This document shows positions 37,593 through 40,503 of a stretch of 40,504 nucleotides of DNA, piece by piece. The notes under the pieces are model-generated. The model did no database searches. It saw nothing but the letters and a program-made list of their open reading frames with translations, and had not been told where the DNA came from. The position numbers and the translations under genes were made by a program. Source of the DNA: Cyanobacteria bacterium GSL.Bin1. GTDB lineage: Bacteria; Cyanobacteriota; Cyanobacteriia; Cyanobacteriales; Rubidibacteraceae. The stretch is taken from positions 1 through 40,504 of the forward strand of contig JAAANX010000088.1 of the NCBI GenBank assembly GCA_009909085.1. Reading direction: 5' to 3'. The stretch's first letter is position 1. Every line of letters starts with the position of its first letter.

Positions 37593-37761
37593 GAAGTTCC
37601 TGATGCAATCTTTGCCGATCCTAGCAAGGGAAAGAGCTTTGAGAGGGCTGTCGGATCCATCTTTTAGAGTAATCCAAGAAAATGATCATCCAGTAGCTAT
37701 AGGCTGCTTAGGGAAATTTCAAGACATTATGGATGGTTTATTTGTTGCAGCACTCTTATAG
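37593..37761 (+). pseudogene. Decayed gene fragment of unknown family
   Basis: Frame one reads EVPDAIFADPSKGKSFERAV then GSIF and stops. One base later the other frame continues FRVIQENDHPVAIGCLGKFQ then DIMDGLFVAALL with a stop at 37759-37761. Together they make one protein-like sequence of about 55 residues broken by an extra T in a T4 run. No start is visible, and the fragment begins exactly at the aminotransferase gene start. I do not recognise the family. Confidence 0.5.
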
Positions 37762-37775
37762 GAATCGCCGTAAAA

Positions 37776-37796
37776 CCAACGTGCTTTAGCCGTTGG
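37776..37796. mobile_element. IS200/IS605 left-end hairpin
   Basis: CCAACG and CGTTGG pair around the 9-nt loop TGCTTTAGC, about 75 bp before the tnpB start. Subterminal hairpins of this look are recognised by the Y1 transposase TnpA of IS200/IS605 elements. It fits the left end of the element that carried the tnpB at 37872. No tnpA is present. Confidence 0.6.
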
Positions 37797-37871
37797 ATCT
37801 AAGGCGGGTGAGTCGAAGACGAACAAACTTTTAACGTGCTAAAATAAGTTTAGTCACTCACTAGAGCATAA

Positions 37872-38687
37872 ATGTTTGTTTTAGAGTACAAAATTAGAGC
37901 CAAGCAAAAGCAGTTTTCTGCCATAGATGAGGCGATCCGCACCATGCAATTTGTGCGGAACAAGTGCCTTCGCTATTGGGAAGATACTCCTGGCGCTAGC
38001 AAGTACGATCTAAACAAATACTGTCGTGTGCTGTCTCACCAGTTCAGTTGGGCGGGTAAGCTCAACTCACAAGCGAGACAGGCAGCAGCTGAAAGAACGT
38101 GGGCAGCTATTAATCGATTCTACAAAAATTGTCGCAATCAAATAAAAGGGAAAAAGGGCTATCCCAAATATCAAAAAGACAACCGATCAGTTGAATATAA
38201 AGATACGGGTTGGAAGTTAGACCCCAACACGAAAAAGCACATCACTTTCACCGATAAGAATGGAATTGGTCGTGTGAAATTAGTGGGAAGTAGAAACATC
38301 TATTTCTACTCACCCGACCAAATTAAGCGCGTTCGGATCGTTCGTAGAGCAGATGGGTACTACTGCCAATTCTGTATCAATATTGAAGTGAAAGAAGAGA
38401 TGGAGCCAACCAAGCGTGTGATTGGGCTTGATGTGGGGCTAGCCCACTTTTTGACTGACAGCAACGGGGAGAAAGTAGAAAACCCTCGTTTCCTCCGAAA
38501 AGGAGAACAGGAGCTTAAACGGTTTCAACGACAACTTTCTCGAAAAGAAAAAGGTTCATCTAATCGCAAAAAAGCCAGAAAGCGGTTGGCTAGAAAACAC
38601 CTGAGCATAAGTAGGCAGCGTCTTGAACACGCCAAGAGAGTGGCGCGTTGCGTATGTCAGTCTAACGATCTGTTATGTCGCTTATAA
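37872..38687 (+). pseudogene. tnpB: Truncated IS200/IS605 TnpB (RNA-guided nuclease ancestor family)
   Basis: The 271-residue frame matches the first two thirds of TnpB: the N-terminal helix-turn-helix region (MFVLEYKIRAKQKQFSAIDE), the WED-like beta part, and the first RuvC aspartate Asp187 in VIGLDVGLAHFLTDSNG, then LSRKEKGSSNRKKARKRLA. It ends at CVCQSNDLLCRL, exactly where normal TnpB goes on to the second catalytic acid (a YEDL-type motif), the zinc ribbon and the last aspartate. It cannot be an active nuclease. The right end of the element is not recognisable, so downstream DNA has replaced it. Confidence 0.9.
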
Positions 38688-38773
38688 TATCCACAACGTA
38701 TATCTTATAAGCATTCTACGTCATTACTACTTTCTACAACATTCATAGAGGATTCCTGCACTCTGAGTAAGAA

Positions 38774-39499
38774 CTACATTTTTCTCCAAAACTCACTCGC
38801 AACAAATCTGTGATGATCCAGAAGAATATCTAGTGAAAAAACCGATTTTTCAAGTAATTTATTAGTATTAAAAATAATTATTTTAGAAGCATTAAGTAAT
38901 TCTTTTGCGTCATAAAAACTAATACTAATATCATTATCTGCCACATCAAAAAACCTACGTTCATCATCTATTTGCCTGACTTCTTTGTGAGCAAATATTT
39001 TATCTCTTGCTTTTTTTATCCGTGAAGCTAAATCTGATTTCTCAAGATGATCGTAATCTTCAATGACTTTTCTATGAAGACACTCAAATTCTTTTCCTAG
39101 CTCTTGTTTTTGTTGCTTTTGAATTGTCTTAATCATGTCTGCAATTTCTTCTTCTGAATGATTACCAACAAAATGAATTTCATCTGGCGTAGAAAAGACA
39201 TCCTTTAAGTATTGTTTGACATTTTTATCCCCTAAATCATCAATTATCTTTTTGAGACTTCCGCTTTTGTTGTTCTTATCAAAAAGGCTCGCGTGCATAT
39301 CCACAATTATGCTAGTGAATAAAGCCATACGTAAAACTTTAGCACCCATAACACCTTCACTATAATTCCATCTTGAATATACATTTGGATCGTCAAGTAA
39401 TGGAGATAAAATTTGCCAATATTGTTCAGCAATAAAAAAGGAGCTTATAATCCCTTGATTTATTACTTTAAGTTTTTTAATTTTTTCGGTAATTGTCAT
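38774..39499 (-). CDS. HEPN-domain protein, AbiU2-like
   Basis: 241 residues, all-helical in appearance. The segment RIKKARDKIFAHKEVRQ holds Arg165 and His171 in the R-x5-H arrangement of HEPN ribonucleases, and the layout resembles the AbiU2 group of abortive-infection proteins. No nucleotidyltransferase (MNT) partner gene is visible beside it. It is AT-rich compared with the core genes. It sits between the truncated tnpB and a Tn554 TnpC-like gene, so it looks like cargo of a mobile element. RNA cutting and a defence role are inferred. Confidence 0.65.
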   Translation of the reverse strand: MTITEKIKKLKVINQGIISSFFIAEQYWQILSPLLDDPNVYSRWNYSEGVMGAKVLRMALFTSIIVDMHASLFDKNNKSGSLKKIIDDLGDKNVKQYLKDVFSTPDEIHFVGNHSEEEIADMIKTIQKQQKQELGKEFECLHRKVIEDYDHLEKSDLASRIKKARDKIFAHKEVRQIDDERRFFDVADNDISISFYDAKELLNASKIIIFNTNKLLEKSVFSLDILLDHHRFVASEFWRKM

Positions 39500-39576
39500 T
39501 TTTCTGTAAGTAGGGGTAAAATATCTAAATCATAAAAATTATAAATGATATCATCATAGAATTAGAATTTTTATCT

Positions 39577-40503
39577 TTATCTTTTAGCTCGTTCTTCTAA
39601 ATACTCCAATGTCCAGCCTCTTTTAACGATTTCTTCATAAGGAGTCCATTCTCCTGTTGGCTCTAAGACGATAATCCCTTCTTTCGTTCCCATACTGGCT
39701 TGGACAAGACCTTCATTCTTAGCCAGTTTGTACCATTTACCAAAGGATTCTTTTACTTGATTGAATTGGCGTTCTTCATCGGTTAAATTGGGAGTCCAAT
39801 TTTCTTCTAAGGCTTTTCTAAATAACCCTGCCTTTGACTTAACCTTTTTTCCTGTAGATAAGTATTCTTCAACCGCAGATAAAGCATTTAGCACGTCTTC
39901 TTTTTGGAGGAAGTCGATTAATTCATTTAACTTTTTACTAAGTCTAATTCCTACTTCTTTCAAGCGAGGTTTAATTAGATTATGGATGGATTCTTCAGGG
40001 TTAGATACTTCTTCCTCTTCTAGAGAGCTAGGAGATGGGTTACACATCTCTTCTTGAGAAGTCGCTTTTCTTAAGGAGTCAATAGAAACGACTTTAGGAT
40101 TGGCATTTCTCAACTCAGTTTTACACTCTTCTAATTCTTCTCTAGTTGAAGTAAGTTCTGATTGAAGACGTTTATTTTCCTCTACTAATCTTGCGTTTTC
40201 CACCTTAAGACGTTCCGCTAGATTACTGCTTTCTTGAAGTTGATAGAGTCTTCCTGTTAGAGATTCATTCGCTTTTCTAAACTGTTCTATCTGACCTTTA
40301 AGTTTCTTGTTCTCCTCTCTGAGATTATAAATAATTACTGATTTAGAATCATCAGAGGCAGAAGGAGCTTTCTTCGGTTTAGGTTGATTTTTCTGTTGGT
40401 CACGAAGAGTTTGAATACGATGTTTAATCTCAGGGTACTTATAGAGATAAGCCGTAGAAACATTAGCTACATGAGCAACCGTCTGGAAATTAATCTTTTG
40501 GTT
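39577..40503 (-). CDS. Tn554 TnpC-like (DUF6262) protein, start outside the window
   Basis: The frame is open from the stop at 39577 to the right edge, 308 codons. It begins, as far as visible, with NQKINFQTVAHVANVSTAYL and YKYPEIKHRIQTLRDQ. This is the helix-turn-helix pattern of DUF6262/TnpC proteins, which accompany the paired tyrosine recombinases of Tn554-like transposons. A long coiled coil follows (ENKKLKGQIEQFRKANESLT to TSTREELEECKTEL). A C-terminal domain (DVLNALSAVEEYLSTGK, LFRKALEENWTPN) recalls replication-type proteins of cyanobacterial elements. A GTG at 40203 would give a 208-residue form without the helix-turn-helix, which is unlikely to be the true start. Recombinase genes would be expected to the right of the window. 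Confidence 0.7.
   Translation of the reverse strand, partial: NQKINFQTVAHVANVSTAYLYKYPEIKHRIQTLRDQQKNQPKPKKAPSASDDSKSVIIYNLREENKKLKGQIEQFRKANESLTGRLYQLQESSNLAERLKVENARLVEENKRLQSELTSTREELEECKTELRNANPKVVSIDSLRKATSQEEMCNPSPSSLEEEEVSNPEESIHNLIKPRLKEVGIRLSKKLNELIDFLQKEDVLNALSAVEEYLSTGKKVKSKAGLFRKALEENWTPNLTDEERQFNQVKESFGKWYKLAKNEGLVQASMGTKEGIIVLEPTGEWTPYEEIVKRGWTLEYLEERAKR

What the first reader, a model, noticed from the sequence alone, without database searches (positions are those of the whole stretch)
38774..40503. HEPN gene next to a Tn554 TnpC-like gene: possible defence cargo of a site-specific transposon
An AbiU2-like HEPN protein with R-x5-H lies 77 bp downstream of a DUF6262/TnpC-like gene on the same strand, at the edge of a disrupted tnpB. 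Tn554-like elements carry cargo beside tnpABC, so this HEPN gene may be mobile defence cargo. The TnpC-like protein also has a long coiled coil and a C-terminal domain not usual for short TnpC.
Basis: partly seen in the sequence, partly recalled or inferred. Interest (0 to 1): 0.52.

Follow-up and report, generated by a model that had tools for sequence, protein, structure and literature searches.

The report
HEPN cargo in a tnpB-targeting transposon
A probable anti-phage RNase gene in a cyanobacterium rides inside a Tn554-type jumping element that has landed in a gene for an RNA-guided DNA cutter (tnpB), and relatives of this element have landed in tnpB genes again and again.

Summary
In detail: an AbiU2-type HEPN gene (38774-39499, -) lies 77 bp downstream of a DUF6262/TnpC gene (39577-40503, -) beside a broken tnpB. 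tnpB paralogs match up to 38672; at 38673 begins a terminal motif found at the tnpC side of related tnpABC elements (0 of 116 shuffles). In 13 cargo-less loci that end lies 64-167 bp after the tnpC match; here it lies 904 bp away, and the HEPN gene fills the gap. So HEPN is internal cargo of a Tn554-family element inserted in tnpB. The contig ends inside tnpC and no tnpA/tnpB ortholog was found in the assembly, so completeness is open. Defence is inferred only. Beyond the window, 12 of 23 insertions with a defined tnpC-side end are in tnpB (8 of 19 counting five identical Calothrix copies once; tnpB is 0.65% of this genome). All 9 two-sided joins made are open across the joint (8 tnpB). The long TnpC is usual here: its C-terminal domain occurs in 62 of 96 TnpC and in stand-alone proteins, one DnaD-like; 18 of 96 loci have DnaB-like sequence beside tnpC. 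This hints at replicative transposition.

The parts
37872..38672 (+). 5' part of an IS605-type tnpB (RNA-guided nuclease gene), interrupted after codon 267, just before the I/V-A-Y-E codons of its paralogs (taken as RuvC-II; motif name recalled)
   Evidence: NF040570 7.8e-45; paralog matches end at 38672; paralog translations; TnpB homology touches the boundary with 0 bp gap
38673..38747 (-). tnpC-side (right) terminal region of the Tn554-like element; terminus reads ...CGACATAA| on the tnpC strand
   Evidence: 80% identical to the start of contig C26 over 66 bp; same motif at the tnpC side of relatives; only 2 places in the own genome, 0 for the reversed-pattern control
38774..39499 (-). HEPN_AbiU2 gene, 241 aa, R165-x5-H171; cargo
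   Evidence: PF18734 5.8e-19; motif alignment; lies between tnpC and the element end
39500..39576 (-). 77-bp spacer between tnpC and the HEPN gene; no antitoxin ORF
39577..40503 (-). tnpC (DUF6262), cut by the contig end at its 5' side: helices 6-39 (HTH-like, by eye), long helix 51-134 (coiled coil), C-terminal domain 173-308
   Evidence: PF19776; AlphaFold2 model from 28 sequences, mean pLDDT 89.5, pTM 0.38; C-terminal domain HMM E=2.3e-18

Best explanation
The last 1.8 kb of the contig is the tnpC-proximal part of a Tn554-family transposon (order tnpA-tnpB-tnpC-cargo, as in relatives) inserted in a tnpB gene. Its cargo is a single HEPN_AbiU2 gene. Mechanism: the paired tyrosine recombinases, helped by TnpC, recombine a 6-bp core between the element ends with a core in a conserved stretch of a target gene, leaving a 6-bp footprint (shown by comparison in relatives, inferred here). 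The insertion separates the 5' part of tnpB from the codons of its later catalytic motifs, which inactivates this nuclease copy (inferred). The HEPN protein most likely is an RNase of the abortive-infection type, silent until infection and then stopping growth (inferred from family; about 0.55 for this function).
For: Family assignments. Paralogous tnpB genes end their match at 38672. End motif at 38673 shared with relatives and with contig C26; 0 of 116 shuffled sequences. tnpC-match-to-end distance 64-167 bp in 13 cargo-less loci against 904 bp here, filled by the HEPN gene; no nearer end motif in the window. Relatives have tnpA-tnpB-tnpC in this order. The two flanks read open across the joint in 9 of 9 insertions joined, 8 of them tnpB. 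Left and right 6-bp cores differ in L158, L159 and L123, as described for the brought-in core of Tn554-related elements (PMC10214605 and PMC12486829, passages). No relative of this HEPN protein in 59 related genomes; G+C 30% against 44% for the window.
Against: No tnpA or tnpB ortholog was found in the assembly and only one tnpC, so the element may be truncated or dead, or its core was not assembled. The other half of the broken tnpB was not located for certain: C46 starts with a 3' half of the same tnpB type but inside a short repeat, and the region after pabC in four related genomes does not support the link. A HEPN profile built here found nothing in 6551 frames from 130 collected loci, duplicates included, so cargo status rests on one locus. 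PADLOC lists no match for the HEPN protein.
Confidence: 0.87

Rival explanations
1. The HEPN gene is not cargo but an older resident of the tnpB neighbourhood, and the element end lies between tnpC and the HEPN gene.
For: In 13 cargo-less relatives the end lies 64-167 bp after the tnpC match, about where the HEPN gene starts here.
Against: The only end motif found downstream of tnpC in the window is at 38673, beyond the HEPN gene. tnpB homology runs up to that motif with 0 bp gap. No relative of this protein in 59 related genomes.
Confidence: 0.06
2. The HEPN protein is an addiction toxin that stabilises the element, not a phage defence; its antidote is an RNA or TnpC itself.
For: HEPN RNases are often toxins of toxin-antitoxin pairs (recalled). 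The gene is close behind and co-directional with tnpC.
Against: No antitoxin ORF; the only Rfam hit is a chance-level one below its gathering score. The table passage read in PMC3710099 lists AbiU2 with Sel1-repeat genes and R-M operons and names no MNT partner for it. The other collected elements show no HEPN gene.
Confidence: 0.25
3. The tnpC locus is a decayed fragment with no active element; the insertion in tnpB is old.
For: No tnpA or tnpB ortholog in the assembly; a second element end at C26 although the assembly shows only one tnpC.
Against: The tnpC and HEPN frames are open. The tnpB 5' part is 91% identical to that of C119 over about 900 bp, which suggests that it has not decayed for long. 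The contig end inside tnpC may be an assembly break.
Confidence: 0.3

Closest known systems
Tn554 (Staphylococcus aureus) and Tn554-related elements such as Tn552-II
   Same: Two tyrosine recombinases plus TnpC/DUF6262, insertion in a gene, a short core with a brought-in copy (6 bp here and in PMC10214605; 7 bp in Tn552-II, PMC12486829; passages)
   Different: Tn554 targets radC (recalled); the elements here lie in tnpB and other genes; most of the cyanobacterial TnpC collected are about twice as long with an extra C-terminal domain; cargo here is a HEPN gene, not drug resistance
[quoted passage not shown]
   Same: Ordinary plus large recombinase, target specificity, 6-bp footprint, a TnpC counterpart (Srap/GinD), movement tabled as 'copy-out copy-in?' (PMC10214605, passages)
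   Different: SEs have a fourth gene (tfp); no helicase-loader-like domain or DnaB partner is mentioned in the passages read
Actinobacterial Tn554-like elements (PMC3414803)
   Same: One long and one ordinary recombinase gene plus tnpC in one direction, sometimes two or more identical copies per genome (passages)
   Different: Insertion targets in tnpB and a TnpC C-terminal domain are not described in the passages read
HEPN AbiU2 family (Lactococcus AbiU2, Pfam PF18734)
   Same: Family match and R-x5-H motif
   Different: Stands alone behind tnpC; no Sel1-repeat, R-M or other partner gene between tnpC and the element end

Membership tests
Tn554 family | tnpC (DUF6262) gene | tested here: met
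   PF19776 29.4 bits, just over the cut-off of 29; 28 of 28 aligned members match it at E<=0.01
Tn554 family | two tyrosine recombinase genes (tnpA, tnpB) upstream of tnpC | tested here: inconclusive
   Contig ends inside tnpC; no ortholog elsewhere in the assembly; present next to tnpC in relatives
Tn554 family | site-specific insertion with a short core and no target duplication | tested here: inconclusive
   Window: only one junction is available. Relatives: 9 of 9 joins open across the joint
Tn554 family | cargo between tnpC and the tnpC-side end | tested here: met
   HEPN gene between 39577 and 38673
HEPN_AbiU2 | family profile over cut-off | tested here: met
   68.8 bits against 26.8
HEPN_AbiU2 | R-x4-6-H active-site motif | tested here: met
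   R165-x5-H171
HEPN_AbiU2 | HEPN fold in a structure model | tested here: inconclusive
   single-sequence AlphaFold2 model has mean pLDDT 36.5 and is of no use
HEPN_AbiU2 | RNase activity and phage protection | not testable with these tools
   needs a bench test
HEPN-MNT toxin-antitoxin | adjacent MNT antitoxin gene | tested here: not met
   between the element end and tnpC the only other frames of 25 aa or more are four of 29-49 aa that overlap the HEPN gene, and the ends of two frames (the broken tnpB and a 41-aa frame) that run in over the element end
guided TnpB (IS200/IS605) | profile over cut-off | tested here: met
   153.8 bits against 100; truncated to model 2-286 of 389
DnaD-like helicase loader (TnpC C-terminal domain) | sequence homology to a DnaD-like protein | tested here: inconclusive
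   HMM of five stand-alone cyanobacterial proteins hits window TnpC at 2.3e-18; of three of these scanned, L294 matches PHROG DnaD-like helicase loader at 2e-15 over residues 20-289, only part of it in the shared domain, and L292 and L295 match nothing; scanned directly, none of the 21 PHROG families matched by the 28 TnpC is a helicase loader
DnaD-like helicase loader (TnpC C-terminal domain) | YxxxIxxxW motif of the DDBH2 domain | tested here: inconclusive
   27 of 28 TnpC have a hydrophobic residue, then I/L/V four and W eight residues on (one has an X), but the Y is L or F; two of the five stand-alone seeds, L292 and L293, do not show the pattern; motif taken from passages of PMC5295017 and PMC6393240
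DnaD-like helicase loader (TnpC C-terminal domain) | DDBH2 fold | tested here: inconclusive
   no PDB match at E<=0.001; VIA rows over about 170-263 are mostly AAA+ small-domain bundles at Z 4-6, a common arrangement

The most novel reading that the evidence does not exclude
A branch of the Tn554 family uses genes for the RNA-guided nuclease TnpB, a multi-copy and itself mobile target, as its landing site. By splitting catalytic or zinc-ribbon codons it disarms a nuclease that could cut competing mobile DNA, while it carries its own defence gene (here HEPN). Its TnpC is fused to a helicase-loader-like domain, and some members bring their own DnaB helicase, so the element replicates during transposition (copy-out), a step still open for Tn554.
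Probability: 0.35. Interest if true: 0.78.

Novelty: new variant of a known kind. Interest (0 to 1): 0.62.

Why it matters
It shows one mobile element repeatedly using another element's RNA-guided nuclease gene as its landing site, and ties a probable defence gene to it as cargo. The TnpC C-terminal domain and the DnaB genes make the open question of how Tn554-type elements move (conservative or replicative) directly testable. Precise ends, cores and targets for many members now allow their cargo to be delimited in genomes.

Tried and rejected
Looked for the rest of the element in the same assembly: 7 integrase-domain matches, none a close TnpA or TnpB. Looked for the contig that carries the other half of the tnpB: C46 is possible, but tblastx of four related genomes' pabC regions does not support it; the one C46 match, in L275, lies about 12 kb away. 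Looked for HEPN relatives: no genome contigs locus, no plasmid, none in 59 related genomes; with the family profile 13 of 386 cyanobacterial genomes, the own one included, and no tnpABC or TnpB in the other 12 loci, which hold about 1.5 kb on each side. HEPN profile in the collected loci: 0 of 6551 frames, no positive control run. Rejected that tnpB is hit by chance: tnpB-like sequence is 0.65% of the own genome. The HEPN structure model was useless, so no fold search was made with it. TnpC fold search: no PDB match at E<=0.001, one BFVD match at 7.5e-4 to an unnamed protein with TM-score 0.21; a DnaD chain was not among the rows shown.

Dropped or doubtful rows: L179 was left out of the 23 insertions, because its motif hit has 6 substitutions and lies 1.5 kb off without tnpB next to it. 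L169 was kept although its hit also has 6 substitutions, because TnpB homology stops 3 bp away. The tnpB breaks of L128 and L179 lie in the C-terminal tail and were placed by eye. L109, with a tnpB piece between remnants of tnpC and tnpA, was not counted as a tnpB insertion. The right boundary of L191 was found by searching for the expected tnpB residues, not by an end motif, so that join is a weaker test. Names of TnpB motifs (RuvC-I, -II, -III, zinc ribbon) are recalled and placed by eye.

Literature: nothing on Tn554-type elements landing in tnpB was seen in the searches. Searches returned no paper. Of the 6 papers I saw passages of three and only the listing of the rest;'s 4 papers passages of one; of the 422 papers only the first 20 in the listing. 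Tn554 with HEPN: no paper. DUF6262: 2 papers, listing only. The library holds open-licence papers only.

Full report
What is in the sequence. The window is a whole contig, C88 of 40504 bp, of a cyanobacterial draft genome of 210 contigs. At its right edge a 241-aa HEPN_AbiU2 gene (38774-39499, minus strand) follows a DUF6262/TnpC gene (39577-40503, minus strand, cut by the contig end) after 77 bp. To the left is an IS605-type tnpB on the plus strand.

Where the element ends. A search of the own genome with 37650-38780 gave several tnpB paralogs. C119, C188, C194, C208 and C32 match up to query position 1023, that is window 38672, and no further; C128 stops at 1019. Their proteins go on with I/V-A-Y-E (C119 then runs into a frameshift). 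So tnpB is cut after codon 267. From 38673 the sequence matches the start of contig C26 (80% over 66 bp), which there interrupts a different tnpB at its DRDIN codons. A pattern for this end occurs at only these two places in the genome, with none for the reversed pattern. A looser pattern finds such an end downstream of tnpC in the window and in 22 other rows, of which I keep 21 (L179 dropped), and in 0 of 116 shuffled sequences. In 13 of these loci the end lies 64 to 167 bp after the tnpC match. In the window it lies 904 bp after tnpC, and the HEPN gene fills the difference. L146, L150 and L111 have 2.8-3.0 kb of other cargo in the same place. This makes the HEPN gene internal cargo.

The family. 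Relatives of the window TnpC were found in 51 of 291 genomes of the order; a TnpA alignment brought 80 named loci, the best of 160. Loci with enough sequence show tnpA, one or two recombinase genes of the tnpB kind, then tnpC. All 28 aligned TnpC match DUF6262. This is the gene set of Tn554 (PMC3414803 and PMC10214605, passages).

tnpB as a landing site. Calothrix sp. PCC 7716 carries five identical copies of 3938 bp, each in a tnpB at the same place, by eye the second zinc-ribbon cysteine pair. I joined the two flanks of 9 insertions: the five in Calothrix, L152 (Mastigocoleus), L123 (G206, Chondrocystis by its plasmid record), L191 (Proteobacteria MAG), all in tnpB, and L146 (Rivularia) in a P-loop ATPase gene. 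In all 9 the frame is open across the joint. For the 8 it is so with or without one 6-bp core, since 6 is a multiple of three. With one core removed the match to TnpB improves in 6 of 7 tnpB cases; in L157 it is slightly worse. In L160 and L152 the open frame is short (175 and 129 aa), so these tnpB copies are themselves partial. In L158, L159 and L123 the right core differs from the left one, the brought-in core known from Tn554-related elements.

How often. Of 23 insertions with a defined tnpC-side end (the window, 21 rows, and C26), 12 are in tnpB: window, C26, L144, L150, L152, L156-L160, L169, L111; 8 of 19 if the Calothrix copies count once. tnpB-like sequence is 0.65% of the own genome; even at 5% the binomial chance of 8 in 19 is 2e-6. 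The loci come from searches for relatives, not from a random draw, so these figures are a guide. TnpB homology comes within 3 bp of the boundary on at least one side in 10 of the 12 (in L158 only by a weak match, E=0.039; in L150 by the second-best match); in L159 and L160 it stops 31 and 37 bp away, but the join is open. Break points differ: RuvC-I (L123, L111), before RuvC-II (window, L169), GLNKS (L144, L150), zinc ribbon (L152, Calothrix), RuvC-III (C26, L191, and L205 by its left side), tail (L128, L179). In L150 the left flank shows no tnpB, and in L111 it looks like a group II intron protein, so those two copies are rearranged or placed otherwise. Other elements lie in other genes; by eye, left flanks look like recQ, comM, RES-domain and phospholipase D genes, so tnpB is one recurrent target among several. 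That Tn554 itself uses radC is recalled.

TnpC. The AlphaFold2 model (28 sequences, mean pLDDT 89.5, pTM 0.38) has an N-terminal helical part, an 84-residue helix and a C-terminal domain at 173-308. An HMM made only from five stand-alone cyanobacterial proteins finds this domain in the window TnpC (2.3e-18) and in 62 of 96 distinct TnpC, window included, at E<1e-3. The 24 named non-cyanobacterial TnpC (77-208 aa) lack it, as do 10 cyanobacterial ones. Of three stand-alone proteins scanned, one matches a DnaD-like helicase-loader family (2e-15), two match nothing; the TnpC themselves match no such family. 18 of 96 loci have a DnaB-like match within 1.5 kb downstream of tnpC, 16 of them starting 25-161 bp after the tnpC match; Pfam confirms DnaB for L150. 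The window has no DnaB gene there. The PDB fold search gave no significant match. The loader idea is therefore an inference from sequence and gene neighbours.

Function of the HEPN gene. Shown: family and active-site motif. Inferred: RNase, abortive infection. There is no antitoxin ORF, no RNA family above chance and no PADLOC match. AbiU2 is tabled as a family with the motif conserved, found with Sel1-repeat genes and in R-M operons (PMC3710099, passages).

Limits. The left half of this element was not seen. The own assembly shows no tnpA or tnpB ortholog and no second tnpC, so I cannot say that the element is complete or active. HEPN as cargo rests on this single locus.

Noticed in passing
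L145, L150, L151, L179, L185, L187, L111, L116, L120, L122, L123, L125, L127, L128, L129, L139 (downstream of tnpC): A DnaB-like replicative helicase gene starts 25-161 bp after the tnpC match in these 16 cyanobacterial loci. In most of them TnpC matches only about half of the C-terminal domain HMM, and L139 does not match; the short match also occurs in some loci without DnaB.
   Followed up: partly
G000:C26:1-102 (L102): A second copy of the element end interrupts a different tnpB at its DRDIN codons in the same genome; the contig stops about 100 bp into the element.
   Followed up: partly
window 37660-37764: A stretch of about 95 bp just upstream of tnpB has 11 copies of 95-100% identity elsewhere in the genome; it looks like a small dispersed repeat.
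   Followed up: no
G000 contigs C128, C188, C119, C46 (L104, L105, L103, L254): tnpB paralogs of this type share a short insertion right after the YED codons (in frame in C128 and C188, frameshifted in C119), inside which contig C46 starts.
   Followed up: no
L146:9721-12599: A Rivularia element in a P-loop ATPase gene carries 2.9 kb of cargo; three of its ORFs have no Pfam match, among them a 405-aa protein with a P-loop-like GKTGVGKTR stretch.
   Followed up: no
L111 left flank: The left flank of this element reads like a group II intron protein while its right flank is tnpB, so it may be rearranged.
   Followed up: no
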